Source: Coprinopsis marcescibilis (lineage: Eukaryota; Basidiomycota; Agaricomycetes; Agaricales; Psathyrellaceae). From it: a stretch of DNA of 14,756 nucleotides. Below the pieces are notes generated by a model. It made no database searches. It saw only the letters and a program-made list of their open reading frames with translations, and had not been told where the DNA came from. Position numbers and translations under genes: made by a program. Every line of letters starts with the position of its first letter. Positions within the stretch are counted from its first letter, which is position 1. Location of the stretch: NCBI GenBank assembly GCA_004369085.1, contig ML210573.1:1-14756 (forward strand). Reading direction: 5' to 3'. This document shows, in pieces, positions 546-13,341 of this stretch.

Positions 546-2150
546 TTAGAATCCAAGCCTTTTATTAGACCCTCTGAGCTGAACGACGATTCCAAGGGTA
601 TGGAGCTGCTTCTTGCAATCCAAAAATTCTCTAGAGTTCTGAGCAAACTGACCGACCAGAAAGACATGAAGCTTCTTTTCCTTCAAGCTCACTTGATTAC
701 CCATGCCATGTCCTTCTTCTTTTGCCCTCTCATTCCGCCTTCGGAAGAACTGAGAAATGAGGGGAAGATCCGGGAGAGAGACTCGGTCAAAGGATAGATG
801 GGCAATGTTCGGGAGGAGGAACGTGATGTCGTTCGTCTTCTCCAGCAGCGATAGGACCCGGCAATTTGGGAGGCTGAGGAATGTGAGGCCCGGGTTCAGG
901 GACACCAAGTGAGCGAGTGTATGAGGATCTGATGCTGCGAAACCAGGGGATTTGGCGAGGGCAAGGACTGCTATGTTTGGGCTGCGTCGCATAAATGGGA
1001 GAATCGGTGTTGCATCTAGTGGTGGGGCGCCTTCAACTGCGAGGCGGGTGGCAGCAGGAAAGTTAAAGTACTGCAAGCATTCCAATGCGCAGTGGAGTGT
1101 GAGGTAGGAAATCTTTGGGTGGGTTGTCATCTGATCAGTACCTTGGAAGTGGTCTGAATCTGCGTATACTGTGGTAGCCGGACTTCTCGTGATCTTCAAG
1201 ACGTTTAGGGAGGGGAGCCCTTTGATAACTGCTAAGGCTTCGTGGGGTATGTGGATAGAAGGGGGTGCGAAGAATGTTATCTCGAGGGTCTTGACTTTGG
1301 GATGTGTGATAATGGCTCCGGGCTCTACGTCAGCTAGTAGTCCCATGTCCCATCCCAGTCGTAGTGTCTCTAAACTGGGAAGCGCCTGCGCAAACCACTC
1401 ATTGCCACAGGACCAGATCCCCGAGAAAGGGTTGAGACCGTCTGCTGGCAAGGTGAGGCGCAGTGATCGCACGGAGGCCCACGGACTATAGATTTCGGGA
1501 TTGCTCAGCTCTTGGGAGAGGGGCGGAAGAATGAGGTGAGCTTCAGATTGGGGGAAGATGAACTCAAGGGTCTGCCATCGCATGTCGGCCGTCGAAGCTG
1601 TAAACAGGATTGATTTAGCCAAGCGGTCGACACTTTCGGAGTATTCTTCGAGCCGGGGACTGCGTCCGTCAACAACACAGAGAGTTAAAGGGGTATTGGG
1701 ACCGGCACGTTGAAACCAGTGGTAAAGCGTATGCTGGGATAGCGGATCTGCTGTGGGTGCCTCGACTTCCTCTGCGCTAAACTTGATCATTAAGCGAGAC
1801 CACAGACATGGGGTCGAGAAGGCAACAATCCTCCATAGTCTGCAGATTGATCGAAATCGGCGAAATTCGAGACGATCCTGTCGAGAAAAAGGTACATGCG
1901 ATGGTGGTAAGGCCGCTTTGAGGATCTCGGCGATGATTTCTGCAGGAAGAAGGCGACTGGACGATGTGATGATTAGATATTCGTTACGGGTCTCAGATAG
2001 CTGGGAGTGCTTGAGCTGAAGGGCTTTCATCTGCTCGTTCAGGATTGAGAGCTCCAGGTTCACCTTTCTCAGCCACTCTTTGCTGTAAACAACCAAACTC
2101 TCGTCGGGGCGATCATTCGTCGATAGAAACTTGACCAGCTCGGGCTTCAT
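546..2150 (-). CDS. F-box-like domain protein with LRR-like C-terminal region
   Basis: This is a single uninterrupted frame of 534 codons on the minus strand. Residues 24-58 look like a short amphipathic coiled coil. Residues 64-121 form an F-box-like domain: LLPAEIIAEIL, then a run ending RSICRLWRIVAFSTPCLWSRL, the W-R-x-x-A-x-x-T-P-x-L-W-S pattern very common in Agaricomycete F-box proteins. The remaining 400 residues contain repeated leucine-rich strands such as VRSLRLTLP, SLETLRLGW, KVKTLEITF and SLNVLKITR, suggesting an irregular leucine-rich solenoid that would bind a target. In this family the F-box contacts Skp1 and the protein acts as substrate adaptor of an SCF ubiquitin ligase; that role and any substrate are inferred. 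Lack of introns is unlike the other genes here but common in this expanded family. The start at 2150 is the most upstream ATG in frame; Met41 is an alternative. Confidence 0.82.
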   Translation of the reverse strand: MKPELVKFLSTNDRPDESLVVYSKEWLRKVNLELSILNEQMKALQLKHSQLSETRNEYLIITSSSRLLPAEIIAEILKAALPPSHVPFSRQDRLEFRRFRSICRLWRIVAFSTPCLWSRLMIKFSAEEVEAPTADPLSQHTLYHWFQRAGPNTPLTLCVVDGRSPRLEEYSESVDRLAKSILFTASTADMRWQTLEFIFPQSEAHLILPPLSQELSNPEIYSPWASVRSLRLTLPADGLNPFSGIWSCGNEWFAQALPSLETLRLGWDMGLLADVEPGAIITHPKVKTLEITFFAPPSIHIPHEALAVIKGLPSLNVLKITRSPATTVYADSDHFQGTDQMTTHPKISYLTLHCALECLQYFNFPAATRLAVEGAPPLDATPILPFMRRSPNIAVLALAKSPGFAASDPHTLAHLVSLNPGLTFLSLPNCRVLSLLEKTNDITFLLPNIAHLSFDRVSLPDLPLISQFFRRRNERAKEEGHGMGNQVSLKEKKLHVFLVGQFAQNSREFLDCKKQLHTLGIVVQLRGSNKRLGF

Positions 2151-2177
2151 TATGAGGTTGGTGGTAGCTTGAGCGCC

Positions 2178-3069: not shown

Positions 3070-4614
3070 ATGGCCTCTTCGTCGAAACCAAAGTGGAAAG
3101 TCCTCCTCCCAATCGAAAACCTTGACCAGTGTCATTATTGCCGAAAAAAGGTGAAATCTAGACTTTGCTCTTCATGCATTGAGGTTAGTTTATGATCCAT
3201 GTTCCAGCTTCAGCCTCTAATCTCAATTCACAGGTCGCATACTGTGGAAGAGAATGTCAATCGGCGGATTGGAAGAACCACAAGGCAGCTTGCCGTACGT
3301 CGCCTAGCTATCTTTTACTCGTCTACTGAAAGCTAATTTAACACCCCAGTGAGGTCTCAGACGGGCAAACTGGACTTGGACTCCTTTTTCCCAATTTTCG
3401 CTTGCTGTATTCGCGAGACGCACGCTATCGCTCAGTCCATGTTCGACCACCCTGCCCTTTCTCGCGACATTATCAACAGCTTTGAGCAACAACGCGAGCT
3501 ACGTCCACTTGAAGGTGCCCTCGTATTCTCCCGTCGAATCGATCTCGGCCCAAAATACGACGAGAAAAAAGCCAAACACGTCGAGTCGCTTTCAAGGGAC
3601 AATCGGGCGATCCAATGGTGGCCGAAAGCCTCAAAACCAACGAAGGCGCTGGAATTGCTCGAGAAGGTCGAATCAGAACACGGAATCCTCTCCAGCGTAA
3701 TCCCTGCTGCATTTGCGCTTCTCGCTGCCAACTTCATCGACGATGGAACCAGCCAATCAGCAGCTCCCCACCGGCCTCACCTCGTGGCGGGAAAGTACCC
3801 CATTGCAGATTTCGGCATCGCCAAGGGTGTCTTCAGGACGCCGTTCCTCGAGAAGGTGCGCTATCGACTCGTTCCCGAAAACGTCGAAATCCAGTTCTCG
3901 AATCCGGACGATCATTATTGGATTTATTTCACGACTGTCCAAGGTGTCACCGCGATTCTCGATTGCAATTGCTACATCTACAATTGGGACGGACTTGCGG
4001 AGTGTACCAACTTTTGGTCGACGGAGGACAACGCGCCTCCGTGTTTCTTCCCTGCGCGGTGGACGGGTACTATGATGAATTGTTTGACGAATATTGGGTA
4101 CGAGGAGCGGGCAAGGTTCTCTGTTCTGCGCGACCCTGCGTTGCAGGAAGCCGCCGCGTCCCTTCGCACGTACAAGAATAACGAAGAGCTCATGGTTCCT
4201 GCGAAGGTGCTGCTAGAGTTCTTTGACCTCGTCAGTGGAGGCAGGCCAACCTTGGATTACGAGAAGAAGTCGCTCCTTCGTGCGTTCGAACGCAACTACA
4301 AGATGGTGCGCAACAGGATCGAGACGAAAGCGTACCTCAAGTACCCCAAAAGGGCGATTCAGATGTTCAATCCTGGTTCAGAGATTGAGGAGTCGGGCAA
4401 GATGATGGTTGAGAAGGATATTCTCGTGCATGGGCCAGATTATTTCAAGGACATGATGAAGGTTTTCAACAAGATTCAGAAGGAGCTGCCGAGTGAGTTT
4501 GCAGGTGTTTCGGACACGCAAAAATCGATGGAGTTGATGGGGCGTCTGAGAGAGAGACAGGAGGAAAAGAAGAAAGGCAAAGGGAAGAAAAAGGGAAAGG
4601 GAAAGAAGATTTAA
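3070..4614 (+). CDS. MYND zinc-finger protein (N-terminal finger)
   Basis: Three exons: 3070-3183, 3234-3294 and 3350-4614, giving 479 aa. Introns are 3184-3233 (GTTAGT..CAG, 50 nt) and 3295-3349 (GTACGT..CAG, 55 nt). Exons 1 and 2 supply a complete MYND finger: C21-x2-C24, C33-x2-C36, YC42-x3-C46-Q, then W51, H54 and C58. The last exon codes about 420 aa that I do not recognise. It contains Trp/Tyr-rich segments (HYWIYFTTVQGVTAILDCN), and the tail is a Lys/Gly run (EEKKKGKGKKKGKGKK) that could be a nuclear or nucleic-acid-binding tail. MYND fingers generally mediate protein-protein contacts with proline-rich peptides. No SET domain is visible, so a SMYD-type methyltransferase is not supported. 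Agaricomycetes have many such orphan MYND proteins; the function is unknown. Confidence 0.85.
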
Positions 4615-4949: not shown

Positions 4950-6459
4950 ATGCCCAAACGACAGCGACATTATTCCATATTCTCGCCACCCAGTCTCTCA
5001 ATGTCAGAGCTCGTGAAGACAACCCTGGACCACGATTCAACCGACATGCTCATCGAAAAGTGGCTTGAGCATCGCAGTAACGCGCACGACGCCTACCATG
5101 AATGGTTCAGGGACATTCGCGAGCGGCAGCTTCACCACCGCGCGAGCTCGCATACGAAGCAGATTATAGCTTGGAATAAGGGGGAATTCGTTCCGGAGAA
5201 CATCTTCTGTCGGACGGTCGACACCGGCAGGCTGATTCCACTGGATCGAACATGGACCACCCATGTCTATCATCACCACTCGATGTCGGAGCGCAAGCTT
5301 TCGATGCTGCCAGTGGTATTTACAATGGTGCGCATATATTCTTCATTATATCCTCTCCCAACCTTTACGGGCATATCTTTACCAATGGGGATCTTGGGAT
5401 TTAAACTTCTGTTATCGCATCTCTGCGTGGAATCATGCCCGTCCATATCATGTGTCTAACACCCTCCAACCTCCTTTCTTCAGTTACCCGAACTAATGCT
5501 TCTTCGCGGGATGCATGACACAGGATGCGACGAGATCTTCATAATAGTAACAGACCTCAAACGGCAGGAGATGGACGATGTCACGGAATACTTCAAGCTC
5601 GTCTGCAGATACTGCTTTGGCTGCCCCTGCAAACCGAGTATCGAACGCAAGATCCAACACGAACGTATGTCTCCCACCCTTCCGATTCACCTGTTCGATC
5701 CCCCGCCCAACCCCTAATCCATACAATCTTTATCTCCTTTTATTTTGCAAATCGCGTGTTTCAAGGACCTCTGACTCACAGAAGCACTCTATTTTAGACA
5801 TGCGATTAAGCCATACACTCCTACGGCAACGACGAACGCCATGTTTTCCACAAATCGACCTCACGCTCCGCGCAATCCTTTACGAAAAGCGGCCCCGCTT
5901 CCTCGTCCTCTTCTCACACCAAACGACCTCATACTCCCAAATCTTCTTCACACATCCCTCATACGTGCCCGACGAGGAGATTTTCTACGACTATCCCACC
6001 GGGTGCCCAAACCCCTGCTGCACAGACGACTGCGAGATGATCCGGTTCCCTCGACGCGGGTTAGAAACCGCTCCTGTCCTTCAAATCAAACTCGGTGCGA
6101 AGGAAGGCAGGAGGAAGCGCATCAAAGTCCGGCCTAAAGAGATGTGCAATTGGATTGATTGTGATATTTGCTTTGGGGAGGAGGTACCTCGGTCCTCTTC
6201 TTCGTCTTCTGCCGATTCCTCGTCCTCACGCTCTAGCAGCGGTGGGTCGAGCTGCAGCGATGGGTCGGACGATGGGAATATTACCATCACCACCACCACA
6301 TCCACCACCACCTCCCCGCCACCGACAGACTCTACGGTGACAACCAAAAAAATCAACTTTGGACAGGTTTGCAGCAAATGCAAGCTCGTTAAATACTGCT
6401 CGCCGGAACATCAGCGGATGGATTGGGAGGAGCATAAGCGAATGTGTGTGCGGCACTAG
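4950..6459 (+). CDS. MYND zinc-finger protein (C-terminal, split finger)
   Basis: Proposed exons 4950-5327, 5484-5664 and 5798-6459 give 406 aa. Introns are 5328-5483 (GTGCGC..CAG, 156 nt, branch CTAAC near 5455, no other AG inside) and 5665-5797 (GTATGT..TAG, 133 nt). Both are longer than the roughly 50-nt introns of the neighbours. The N-terminal 300 aa are unrecognised, with a Cys-rich patch CRYCFGCPC and later GCPNPCC. The C-terminus carries the ligands of a MYND finger: C308-x2-C311, C378-x2-C381, YC387-x3-H391-Q, W396, H399 and C403. A Ser/Thr/Pro-rich insert of about 60 residues separates the first two Cys pairs. His replaces the usual sixth Cys. The start may instead be Met17 (4998). 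The beginning of exon 3 is uncertain because another frame is open there. Function unknown; protein-protein binding is inferred from the finger. Confidence 0.7.
6283..6317 (+). repeat. ACC/CAC trinucleotide run coding Thr
   Basis: A short ACC-type triplet tract codes the Thr-rich part of the linker inside the second MYND finger. It is in frame with the gene and preceded by a TCN/AGC tract coding serines from about 6193. Such runs vary in length easily by slippage. Confidence 0.7.
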
Positions 6460-7013: not shown

Positions 7014-10000
7014 TTAACCAGAGCACATCACGCAAGCATCCTTGTTCTCGAGAGAGCACATCAGCTTGGCCTCTTCCAACTCCCGTTGGTGTTTTCGCTC
7101 GAGAGCGGCGGCAAACTCGGGATCAGCTTCAGCAGCAGCTCTGGTCTTCTCATCCAGCGACATGCTAGCGAGGCTGTTGGTAACGCTTTCCGCTGTTGAT
7201 GGCGAAAGAGCTGGGGTAGGAGCAACCTGGGTGATGGGGGAAGGGCTGATGGGGGAAGCCACAGCATTGCCGTTAGTGCGTGCCGCGGGAACGGGGACCT
7301 GACGCGCAGGAGAGCTGACGGGCTTGGCCCCCTGCAGCTGTTGCTCCTTGGCGGTCTTAAGCATGCCCTGGTCGACCGTGAACTGGATGGCTTGAGCAGC
7401 TGGTCGTGTACGGAGATAGTACATGCCGGTCTTCAGGCCCTTCTTCCAACCGTAGAAGTGCATGCTGGTAAGTTGACCAATGGTCGGCGAGGATAGGTGG
7501 ACGTTCAAGCTCTGGCTCTGGCAAATGAATGCACCACGGTCGGCAGCAAGGTCAATGACCTTCTTCTGACTGATTTCCCAGACGGTCTTGTAGATGGCCT
7601 TGACATCGGCAGGGATAGTAGGAATGTTTTGGACAGAGCCGTTGTGGGCGATGATCAGGTTCTTCATGTTGTCGTCCCAAAGACCAAGGTCAACGAGTTC
7701 GCGGAGAAGCCATGGGCAGACGACCTGGAATTCACCGGCAAGCACGCGGCGAGTGTAAATGTTGCTGTCACCCCGAAACAATTAGCTAGAGAAAGGAGAA
7801 CTGAAATCAAAGCACATACCTGGTATATGGCTCAAAGCACTCATTGAAGCCCAAAATCTGACTCGTAGATGCGGTAGGCATGGGAGCGAGCAATAACGAG
7901 TTCCTCAAACCTGTCTTGGCAATCTGGGCTTTCAGTGAAGCCCAATCCCAGAGATCGCTTGGGGCGACTCCCCAAAGGTCATACTGTAGTTGACCTTGTT
8001 GAGCGGGACTACCTTCCCAGGTTTCATATGGGCCCTCGACAGCAGCAAGCTCAGAGCTAGCTTCAAGTGCGCCATGGTAGATGGTCTCGAAGATCTTGAT
8101 GTTCAACTCCTTGGCAGCCTGAGAGTCAAATGGCATGCGCAGGGCCATGAATGCATCGGCAAGACCTTGCACACCGATACCAATAGGCCTGTGGCGCATG
8201 TTCGAGCGGCGAGCTTCAGGGACAGGGTAGTAGTTGACGTCGATGATACGGTTCAAGTTTCGGGTCACAACTTTGACAACTTCGTGGAGCTTCTTGAAAT
8301 TGTAAACTCCGTTGTTGATGAAGGTAGGGAGTGCGAGGGAGGCAAGGTTGCAAACGGCAGTCTCCTCCGGGGAGGAATATTGGATGATCTCGGTGCAGAG
8401 GTTGGAGGACTTGATGGTGCCAAGGTTCTTTTGGTTTGATTTGGCTGTGAGAATGCGATGAGAAATGGGGCTGCGGTAAGATGGCATGGGGATACATACC
8501 ATTGGCATGATCTTTGTAAACCATGAAAGGGCCGCCGGTCTCGATCTGAGCTTCCAAGATGGCGTACCAGAGCTTTTGAGCGTTCATTGTCTTGCGGGCA
8601 CGACCTTCGCGTTCGTAGCGTTCGTATAATTCCTCGAACTCAGCCCCATGGACTTCATGGAGACCTGGCGCCTCGTTGGGGCAGAACAGGGACCACTGAC
8701 CGTCAGATTCAACACGCTTCATGCTGGAGAAAAGGATTAGAGAATATAAGGGTCAAATATGGAAGGAGCCTACAAAAGATCAGGTATCCAGAGGGCGTAG
8801 AATAAATCACGGGCACGGTTTTCTTCCTTTCCGTGGTTCTTCCTCAGGTCCAAGAATTCAAAGACGTCCGCATGCCAGGGTTCGATGTAGATGGCAAACG
8901 CTCCTGGACGCTTGTTGCCACCTTGGTCGACATACCGCGCAGTTGCATCGTAAGCGCGAAGCATGGGAACAATCCCGTTGGAATAACCGTTGGTGCCAGC
9001 AATGTAGGACCTACAAAAGGTATGAGTGGAAAGCGCATACATTTTGAAAGGGATACTAACCCGGTCGAACGGATACAGTGAATGTTGAGACCGATACCTC
9101 CGGCAGTCTTGCTGATCATGGCACATTGCTTGAGAGTATCATAGATTCCCTCGATGGAATCATCCTTCATGCAAACAAGGAAGCAGGAGCTGAGTTGGGG
9201 ATGAGGGGTTCCGGCGTTGAAGAGAGTTGGCGAAGCATGAGTAAAGTATCGCTCCGACATAAGGTTGTAGGTTTCAATGACTCGCTCAATGTCGCGCCCG
9301 TGGATACCAACAGCAACACGCATGATCATGTGCTGGGGTCGCTCGGCCACTCGGCCGTTAATTCGCAGAAGGTACGACCGCTCCAATGTCTTGAATCCGA
9401 AGCTATAACAGATTGAGTACAGACTGTGGCGGGATGAACCAGGTTACTGACAAGTTATAGTTGAAATCGCGGTTGTAGATGATGGCAGAGTCGAGGGTCT
9501 CTGCATTATCGCGGATGACCTCCCAGGTATCTTGCGAGATCATGCCGGAGGGCTTGCCATTCTTTGGGTTCACTGCGGTGCGATATAAGCACACCATAGG
9601 GGACTATGATAGCATCGGGGGACATACCGTATTCATAGAGGTCTTTAACCACTTGGGAAAAGTTCTTCTTTGTCTCCTTGTGGAGGTTGGAAATGGCGAT
9701 GCGAGCGGCGAGAACAGCATAATCAGGATGTTTGGTTGTAAGATATGCGGCTGTTTCGGCTGCAAGGTTCTGTGGAGTGCATGCATTGGCGTGTTGCTCG
9801 ATATATAAGGGAATATACACGTACATCGAGCTCAACCGTTGTCACCCCGTGGTAGACCCCGACGACGACTTTCTGCGCGATCCTAATGGGTAATGACGCG
9901 TTAGAGGCTATCAAGCATAAATTGTTAGTACTTACTCGATGGGATCCACGAAATTCAAGTCTAAACCATAGCACAATTTGTTGATTCGGGCGGTGATCTG

Positions 10001-11519: not shown

Positions 11520-13341
11520 ATGCCATCTTATACCGCTGTGTTTGAAGACACATCACCATTTTTCATATATGACGGCCAGTGGAGAGCAGGGACATCGAGG
11601 GACGACGATTTTGCTGATCAGTACGTCTATGCATTCTCTTGACGGAGGGTTCCATGAAGCGCCGCCTTTGCTGACTGAAATTTACCACTAGATACTCCGA
11701 AAGCAGCTTCACATTAACAGAACGGACAGGATCCACATTCTCTTTCACATTCTACGGGACTGGGGTGGGGATTTATGGCGCCAGGAGGGGGAACCACGGT
11801 TTTTACCAAGTAACAGTTGACGGGTCAACTGTGCTATCGCAGAGCGGTAGAGCAGATCCATTCGAATTCAACGCAACCCTATATTCTGCGACGCTCACAA
11901 AAGGATTCCATCGGGTTCAACTGCGCAACACAGACAATTCATTCCGGGACATTGACTATGTGAGTCCCTTTCTGAAGCTCTCCAATCTTTAAGCCAGATT
12001 TGACTGGCTTCCTGCGCCTATAGGTCTCTTGGGAAGCTAGCGTTGGCCAAGACAACGAACCTCTCATCGTTAACGTGATTCAAGACTCCCATCCCGCCTG
12101 GACGTACACTCCAGAACTGGCTTGGACGACACAGCCGCCTGATGTAGCCGCCTTTTCTGGTGGGAGCGGACGGTAAACTTACCCCTTGTATTCTGGTAGC
12201 CTTTCTGATAGATGCATGGCAGTGGAACAAATCAAGTTGGGGCAACAGCAAGCTTGACTTTCACAGTACGTACCATTTACTCTTCCGGGCTTCCGCTTCT
12301 AACACCACCGGTTAGGGTTCGTCACGCCTGCTTAACGAGATATTACCCTGGGTTTAATCAATCGTATAGGAGACGCCATCGCCATATATGGTCCATCAGG
12401 TCCCAATTGCGCCTCTCAATACACCGTTTCAGTGAACACGCTTCCAGGAGGACAAACATTCCGCGCAGAGAAGCAGTTCTTCAGAGCTCGGCAGCTAATG
12501 TATTATGCGGCCAACCTGGGTCCTGGTACTCATGTTATCAACGTAACGCTTGCAGGGCTATCAAACGGACAGCCGCTGCAAATGCTCTCCCTCGACTACG
12601 CGGAAATATACACCACACCCTCTCTAGGCGGAAGGTGAGTAAAATCTCCGGCCCTTCCTTCACTTTCGGCTCTGAAGTATTCGTTTCCCAGCTTCTCGGC
12701 TATAGGCGGCTCATCAAGGTGCGTAGATTTATATCAAAACGTTAGGAGGTCTATACTTACACACCGCGATACCCCAGGTCTTCTTCAGACCAGTCGGTAG
12801 GTCTATTCGTCGGGCTTGGTCTCACTGCGGCTCTTTCCGTTCTGTCTCTCGCCCTCCTCGCCTATATTTTCTATCTTTTCAAAATCGGCCGGATCCGCAA
12901 GGCTACCCGGAGTGACTTGGACCAGTACGTGCCAGCCGCTGCCATGAGTCCCGCCAATGTTCCCCAATACTATGGCGCGGAACCGCTATCATTGCCGCCC
13001 GTCGTATCGCAACCTTCAATGCAGTTTCAATCGCACCCCCAATATGATCGCGATTCGCACTACCCAACTTCGTTCCCACAACCAAGTAGAAGTACTGGTC
13101 TGACTGATCATTCCCACGATCGTTCTCGTGGGCAATCAAGTTCTGATGCGCTCAGCGGGAATGGTACTTTCATGACCACCAGCTCTAACGTGAGTTTGCG
13201 ATGTTTTCAAAGTTGTGGAAATAAGTATTCTAATTGAAACATGAATAGCCTATTATTTCAACGTATAGCAAAGGTCAAAGACAGCCTTCGCGGCCGATTT
13301 CAGAGGCACCTCCCCCAGCATACAACGTTGCCACTCCTTAA
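11520..13341 (+). CDS. single-pass membrane protein with two galactose-binding-like ectodomains
   Basis: Nine exons: 11520-11620, 11692-11959, 12024-12172, 12223-12265, 12316, 12370-12634, 12692-12718, 12778-13189 and 13249-13341. They total 1359 nt, 452 aa. Two tandem beta-rich domains (about 1-123 and 124-275) share a motif: GTGVGIYGARRGNHGFYQV in the first and GDAIAIYGPSGPNCASQYTV in the second. A short Ser/Gly-rich linker leads to one transmembrane helix (292-318). A basic stop-transfer segment follows (KIGRIRKATR), then a disordered, Gln/Pro/Ser-rich cytosolic tail ending in PPPAY. This layout is common in Agaricomycetes, where such proteins are usually annotated only as hypothetical transmembrane proteins. 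No cleavable signal peptide is seen, so the helix probably serves as membrane signal. A cell-surface sensing or wall-contact role is inference. The ATG at 11520 opens the first domain directly. The 1-nt exon is the uncertain point of the model. Confidence 0.83.
12316..12316 (+). other. putative single-nucleotide exon
   Basis: Exon 4 ends TTC-ACA in phase 0 before the strong donor GTACGT (12266). The next strong exon starts GA-GAC-GCC after TATAG (12369), so one nucleotide is missing. Between them lies an ordinary 50-nt intron (12266-12315, branch CTAAC at 12299, ending GGTTAG), then G12316, then a 53-nt intron beginning GTTCGT (12317-12369). Joining gives ACA-GGA-GAC, that is T-G188-D, matching the glycine at the same place in domain 1. 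The alternative is donor GTACCA (12270) with one 100-nt intron, giving Val-Arg in place of Gly. Confidence 0.55.

What the first reader, a model, noticed from the sequence alone, without database searches (positions are those of the whole stretch)
12266..12369. A single-nucleotide exon in the membrane-protein gene
Seen: the 104 nt between two clearly coding exons read as intron (50 nt, GTACGT..CTAAC..TAG), one G, intron (53 nt, GTTCGT..TAG). Both sizes match the gene's other introns (50-71 nt). The single G repairs the frame and creates G188 in TGDAIAIYG. This aligns position by position with GTGVGIYG of the protein's own first domain. Removing the first intron creates CACAG|GTTCGT, a good donor context, so ordered splicing could bypass the size limit on exon recognition. 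One-nucleotide exons are exceptionally rare; one is known in Arabidopsis APC11. Inference: it is spliced this way in vivo.
Basis: partly seen in the sequence, partly recalled or inferred. Interest (0 to 1): 0.88.

Follow-up and report, generated by a model that had tools for sequence, protein, structure and literature searches.

The report
One-nucleotide exon shared by paralogous genes
A mushroom membrane-protein gene appears to contain a coding exon only one letter long, and eight sister genes in the same genome carry the same one-letter exon at the same spot, which annotation often gets wrong.

Summary
Window 12266-12369 of Coprinopsis marcescibilis reads as intron (50 nt), one G (12316), intron (53 nt). 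Of 15 canonical in-frame parses enumerated, only this one restores the conserved F-x-G-D motif. Paralogs decide the matter. Of 14 family loci found in the genome, 9 have the same intron-G-intron at the same codon, and in all 9 it is the only enumerated parse giving F-x-G[DEH]. Two paralogs keep only the first intron, then read GGN; two have no intron there; one is degenerate. A spliced aligner given transcript-like relatives chose the 1-nt exon in 81 of 81 runs on the nine loci with splice-site scores, 62 of 81 without. The deposited protein (Val-Arg, one 100-nt intron) is very probably wrong. In other fungi, annotated proteins are intact at this junction in 25 of 81 and 13 of 36 cases but usually at three other junctions, while transcript-like sequences all show F-x-G (24 of 24, 21 of 21), so the exon is probably old. 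Splicing order is unproven. One-nucleotide exons are known from plant APC11 and VPS55 and Fusarium CYP621A; this is a new member, by my searches the first in Basidiomycota.

The parts
11520..11620 (+). exon 1 (101 nt), ATG start
   Evidence: gene model; same junction recovered by spliced alignment of a transcript-like relative
11692..11959 (+). exon 2 (268 nt), first domain with FYGTGVGIYG
12024..12172 (+). exon 3 (149 nt; 149 nt in 12 of 14 loci in the best runs)
12223..12265 (+). exon 4 (43 nt; also 43 nt in all nine 1-nt-exon loci), ends ...TTC ACA
12266..12315 (+). intron 4a, 50 nt, phase 0, GTACGT...TTAG
12299..12303 (+). CTAAC, putative branch site of intron 4a, A 13 nt before the intron end
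12316..12316 (+). single-nucleotide exon, G, first base of the Gly188 codon
12314..12318 (+). AGGGT core (acceptor, exon, donor), present in all nine loci
12317..12369 (+). intron 4b, 53 nt, phase 1, GTTCGT...TATAG
12354..12358 (+). TTAAT, weak putative branch site of intron 4b
   Evidence: loose YTNAY motif only
12270..12369 (+). 100-nt single intron implied by the deposited protein (P0001, FTVRDAIAIYG); donor shifted by 4 nt; judged wrong
12370..12634 (+). exon 6 (265 nt), second domain; GA completes Gly188, GAC is Asp189
12692..12718 (+). exon 7, 27-nt microexon in the linker before the transmembrane helix; borders uncertain
   Evidence: recovered with query P0007, placed differently with P0006
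12778..13189 (+). exon 8, transmembrane helix and tail
13249..13341 (+). exon 9, ...PPPAYNVATP stop

Best explanation
The gene is spliced with an exon of one nucleotide (G12316) between two short canonical GT-AG introns. The G plus the first two bases of the next exon make the glycine of a conserved beta-hairpin turn (F-x-G-D/E). Shown by sequence: the parse, its uniqueness among the enumerated canonical parses, and its presence in nine divergent paralogs. Inferred: that the spliceosome removes the two introns one at a time by intron definition, since the acceptor of one and the donor of the other abut on one base and can hardly be engaged together. Removing intron 4a first leaves CACAG|GTTCGT; the resulting donor is (C/A)AG|GT in 6 of the 9 loci. 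This order is the likelier but is not shown. The exon is ancestral in the family; intron 4b was later lost exactly in L004 and probably in L010.
For: Only enumerated canonical parse giving F-T-G-D in the window gene and F-x-G[DEH] in 9 of 9 loci. Spliced alignment with 9 transcript-like relatives chose the 1-nt exon at the site in 81 of 81 runs on the nine loci with splice-site scores and 62 of 81 without; elsewhere a 1-nt exon was used 3 times in 153 scored runs, at residues 269, 272 and 282 in the variable linker. L004 (intron 4a only, then GGC GAC) sits in a supported group with the two-intron genes L006, L007 and L009 (100/98), so intron 4b behaves as a separate, losable intron. No blastn alignment crosses these introns even between the closest pair L001/L002, yet AGGGT is kept. 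CTRAY branch-like motifs occur in 6 of 9 introns 4a and 5 of 9 introns 4b against about 1.4 and 1.3 expected; the looser YTNAY in 8 and 9 against 5.5 and 4.9. Transcript-like relatives: F-x-G in 24 of 24 and 21 of 21. In the AlphaFold model of paralog P0002 (mean pLDDT 75.7; 96 for residues 181-190) Gly186-Asp187 is the two-residue gap between strands 179-185 and 188-196, where an extra residue would be expected to disturb the hairpin.
Against: No RNA read of this gene was seen. The same mRNA could in principle come from one intron with a non-canonical end (GT...TA, 12266-12368, or TA...AG, 12267-12369). Without splice-site scores 19 of 81 runs prefer another parse, among them all 9 on L007. 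Donors of intron 4b are weak at +3 to +6. The score gain from allowing the 1-nt exon is modest (6 to 12 units in the best run of each locus). Four of the 7 deposited proteins, the window gene's own included, have read-in residues instead.
Confidence: 0.94

Rival explanations
1. One 100-nt intron, 12270-12369, with the donor 4 nt downstream; the protein reads F-T-V-R-D-A-I (the deposited model P0001).
For: In frame with canonical ends; used in the deposited protein; the same +4 donor with an acceptor at the end of the interval is in frame in 8 of the 9 loci, not L011.
Against: It replaces a conserved Gly by Val-x and lengthens a hairpin turn; a second GT 4 nt on is built into any GTNNGT donor, so a +4 shift is a generic annotation escape; it leaves AGGGT in all nine intervals unexplained; transcript-like relatives do not show it (0 of 24 and 0 of 21).
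Confidence: 0.03
2. One long intron of 103 nt with a non-canonical end (GT...TA at 12266-12368 or TA...AG at 12267-12369), which would give the same mRNA as the 1-nt exon.
For: Gives the identical mature sequence, so ordinary RNA-seq cannot separate it; no call excludes it for this gene alone.
Against: Needs non-canonical ends in nine genes although canonical ones are present; does not explain the conserved AGGGT and the branch-like motifs 49-66 nt after the donor or the exact absence of the second intron in L004 and L010.
Confidence: 0.02
3. A nested stwintron that is removed entirely, with no exonic base between the two introns.
For: Two adjoining short introns needing consecutive splicing, as in fungal twin introns (PMC12403724, PMC9024468; listing and abstract openings only).
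Against: Removing all 104 nt is not among the in-frame parses, and each of the 15 enumerated in-frame parses keeps exonic bases in the interval; the [D1,2] arrangement, exon-G[GT...AG]T, is not present.
Confidence: 0.01

Closest known systems
Arabidopsis APC11 single-nucleotide exon (PMC4674806, parts 1-2 of 3 read) and plant APC11/VPS55 (PMC8831610, passages read)
   Same: One coding nucleotide between two GT-AG introns, needed for frame; missed by annotation; conserved among relatives; absent from some copies or lineages that lost the introns.
   Different: Plants, base A in APC11; few copies per genome; RT-PCR and mutants available. Here G, nine copies in one genome, introns of 49-68 nt, no RNA from this gene seen.
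Fusarium CYP621A one-nucleotide exon (PMC12940212, parts 1-2 of 3 read)
   Same: Fungal nuclear gene; core AGGGT; supplies one base of a conserved glycine codon; most annotations wrong.
   Different: Ascomycete P450 orthologs, middle base of the Gly codon; unrelated protein; RNA reads in two species. Here a basidiomycete membrane-protein family, first base of the Gly codon, many paralogs.
[D1,2] stwintrons of Hypoxylaceae (listing and abstract openings)
   Same: Two short introns needing consecutive splicing; the first event makes or improves the donor for the second.
   Different: Stwintrons leave no exonic base between the introns; here one base stays.
Mitochondrial single-nucleotide exons (Ophiostoma rnl group II introns, PMC12308204, passages read; placozoan cox1, PMC5436844, listing only)
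   Same: Exon of one base.
   Different: Organellar; the Ophiostoma case involves group II introns, not the spliceosome.

Membership tests
nuclear single-nucleotide exon (APC11/VPS55/CYP621A kind) | one base flanked by AG and GT, each neighbour a workable GT-AG intron | tested here: met
   12314-12318 AGGGT; introns 50 and 53 nt
nuclear single-nucleotide exon (APC11/VPS55/CYP621A kind) | the base is required for frame and for a conserved residue | tested here: met
   only enumerated parse giving F-x-G-D in this gene and F-x-G[DEH] in 9 of 9 loci
nuclear single-nucleotide exon (APC11/VPS55/CYP621A kind) | conserved in related genes | tested here: met
   9 of 14 family loci of the same genome; DNA of other species was not available
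nuclear single-nucleotide exon (APC11/VPS55/CYP621A kind) | cDNA of the gene contains the base | not testable with these tools
   no reads of this gene; transcript-like relatives show F-x-G in 24 of 24 and 21 of 21
nuclear single-nucleotide exon (APC11/VPS55/CYP621A kind) | changing the base changes the mRNA by that base | not testable with these tools
   needs a minigene experiment
[D1,2] stwintron | internal intron splits the outer donor between bases 1 and 2 and everything is removed | tested here: not met
   no exon-G[GT..AG]T at the start of the interval; full removal is not among the in-frame parses
CE2_N (PF17996) domain | score above the curated cut-off | tested here: inconclusive
   closest paralog P0002 27.3 against 27.9 (one stretch, first domain); relatives P0014 30.3 and P0003 35.6 (two stretches each); the window protein itself was not scanned

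The most novel reading that the evidence does not exclude
The 1-nt exon is an ancient, near-fixed feature of this membrane-protein family across Agaricales and Boletales, present in many genes of many species and mis-modelled in most annotated genomes, so a single-base exon has been spliced faithfully since before the two orders split and lost only now and then by exact loss of the second intron.
Probability: 0.6. Interest if true: 0.75.

Novelty: new member of a known kind. Interest (0 to 1): 0.64.

Why it matters
[quoted passage not shown] It also points to a specific, repeated annotation error: at this codon 56 of 81 and 23 of 36 annotated relatives are not intact. It would extend nuclear one-base exons from plants and one ascomycete P450 to Basidiomycota and to a multigene family.

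Tried and rejected
Assembly error: rejected, since nine loci on six contigs share the arrangement. Full-excision twin intron: rejected by frame. Deposited 100-nt intron: disfavoured (see rivals). Ordered splicing from donor strength: GTRNG in 9 of 9 introns 4a and 1 of 9 introns 4b (Fisher 4e-4), GTRNGT 8 and 1 (3e-3), GTNNG 9 and 5; but U1 duplex energies average -3.9 (4a), -4.9 (4b before removal of 4a) and -5.3 (4b after), p 0.20 and 0.42; so not claimed. Codon choice before the site: 7 of the 7 codons that could end in A or G end in A, p 0.017 from family codon usage, with related sequences treated as independent: suggestive only. Cross-species DNA: the viral-contig scan and the genome-contig scan found no relative; metagenome scans have a cap of zero, so none was made. 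Weak extra genome matches: C53, C133 and C64 were fetched and gave no 1-nt exon and low scores; two on C2 and one on C1 (E 0.005-0.007) were not fetched. L008 is a degenerate copy with stop codons and gave no 1-nt parse. The automatic classes are crude (P0032 fell in F.V+ by a chance match), so the junction counts are used.

Full report
What was checked. The window is contig C402 of a 36.3-Mb assembly and matches the deposited Coprinopsis marcescibilis protein FA15DRAFT_605781 (P0001, 99% identity, contig of 14,756 bases). My model of the gene runs from 11520 to 13341 on the + strand in nine exons: a 452-residue protein with two similar domains and one transmembrane segment. An AlphaFold model of the closest paralog P0002 (mean pLDDT 75.7) shows two strand-rich parts and helix 287-315. 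Many of the 50 PDB matches listed by Foldseek are carbohydrate-active enzymes or carbohydrate-binding modules, for example CBM36 7ay3 (TM-score by target 0.64), but the list is mixed and scores by query are low. The family's function is not established; a lectin-like cell-surface role is inference.

The interval. 12266-12315 and 12317-12369 are both GT-AG introns of the size of the gene's other introns, and the G between them is the first base of the Gly188 codon. With introns of at least 35 nt, 15 canonical in-frame, stop-free parses exist; only one gives F-T-G-D. Full retention is out of frame, and full excision of 12266-12369 is not among the in-frame parses.

Paralogs. A search of the same genome with exon 6 gave 14 loci (the tool calls such counts lower bounds). 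Two further queries gave the same 14 and only weak extras. Nine loci (L001, L002, L003, L005, L006, L007, L009, L011, L014; the other eight 76 to 35% identical to the window gene in exon 6) have an intron of 49-66 nt, G, and an intron of 53-68 nt at the same codon, and in each this is the only enumerated parse with F-x-G[DEH]. L004 and L010 have one intron, at the position of the first, followed by GGC GAC and GGA GAC. L012 and L013 have no intron here. L008 is degenerate with stop codons. The closest pair, L001 and L002, gives blastn alignments on both sides but none across these introns, so the shared AGGGT is not recent copying.

Unbiased parse. I wrote a protein-to-genome spliced aligner that allows any exon length and ran nine transcript-like relatives against 17 loci. 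On the nine loci it put the 1-nt exon at the site in 81 of 81 runs with splice-site scores; elsewhere it used a 1-nt exon 3 times in 153 scored runs, at residues 269, 272 and 282 in the variable linker. Without splice-site scores the site was chosen in 62 of 81 runs: 7, 6, 7, 9, 7, 0, 9, 9 and 8 of 9 for L001, L002, L003, L005, L006, L007, L009, L011 and L014. So protein similarity alone is not always enough.

Chance. Dinucleotide shuffles of each interval give AGNGT in a usable place in 1.8 to 12% and AGGGT in 0.15 to 4% of cases. Nine of nine real intervals have it, at the base that the protein needs; the nine are related and were chosen for this layout.

History. In a maximum-likelihood tree of 23 proteins (L008 left out), L004, with one intron, lies in a supported group (100/98) with L006, L007 and L009, which have two; the fork inside the group is unresolved. 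Loss of the second intron in L004 is the simplest reading. L011 groups with a C. cinerea protein (98/95), and the L001 group lies near another C. cinerea protein, so the arrangement should predate the split of the two species. The place of L014 is unsure (long branch, 62/56).

Other species. Rows from small lgn or jgi contigs with an uninterrupted reading frame I call transcript-like; that label is my inference. At this junction 25 of 81 annotated proteins are intact, against 73 of 81, 81 of 85 and 78 of 82 at three other intron junctions; a fourth, the linker junction LGG|S, is also poor, 33 of 58. Transcript-like rows are intact at the site in 24 of 24, eight of which are near copies of one another, and at the four other junctions in 16 of 18, 23 of 25, 24 of 24 and 17 of 23. 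In a second set, mostly Mycena and with five rows shared, the annotated figures are 13 of 36 against 32 of 35, 37 of 37 and 36 of 37, and the transcript-like ones at the site 21 of 21. A frequent error is F-x-V-x, as expected when a predictor uses the second GT of a GTNNGT donor to mend the frame; it occurs in Agaricales and Boletales rows (the orders are recalled, not looked up). This is what a widespread 1-nt exon would produce, but it is indirect, and some intact annotated rows, such as those of Tulasnella, may simply have no intron here.

Mechanism. Acceptor and donor abut on one base, so both introns can hardly be engaged together; removal one after the other by intron definition, as proposed for APC11 (PMC4674806, read), is the likely route. 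Evidence for 4a first is mixed: donor bases favour it, U1 duplex energies do not. It is not claimed as shown.

Literature. Nuclear one-base exons found here: APC11 (PMC4674806), APC11 and VPS55 across plants (PMC8831610), and CYP621A in Fusarium (PMC12940212), whose authors call theirs the first in a fungal gene. In the searches no listed title or abstract opening reports a one-base exon in a basidiomycete (searches listed nothing; one search listed 15 of 185,390). Three of the nine papers were checked by passage and report none; the shortest exon given for Phanerochaete P450 genes is 6 bp. The library holds open-licence papers only, so absence there is not proof.

Noticed in passing
window 7014-9841, - strand: Exons that look like a ribonucleotide reductase large chain; Pfam Ribonuc_red_lgN and lgC match 8844-9443; the rest was read by eye.
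   Followed up: partly
window 546-2177, - strand: Uninterrupted 543-residue reading frame with a sub-threshold F-box-like match.
   Followed up: partly
window 5551-6459, + strand: Reading frame ending in a MYND zinc finger (PF01753, E 3.6e-10).
   Followed up: partly
window 3337-4614, + strand: 425-residue reading frame with a lysine-rich tail and no Pfam match at E 0.01.
   Followed up: no
window 12692-12718: 27-nt microexon in the same gene, in the linker before the transmembrane helix; its borders vary with the query, and the junction before it is often not intact in annotated relatives (33 of 58 intact).
   Followed up: partly
L008 (G000:C109:26920-30183): Degenerate family member with in-frame stop codons and no clear splice pattern at this site.
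   Followed up: partly
L003, L005, L008 on C109; L004, L006, L007 on C81; L002, L009, L010 on C18; L012, L013, L014 on C138: Twelve of the 14 family members lie in four groups of three within about 6 to 35 kb.
   Followed up: no
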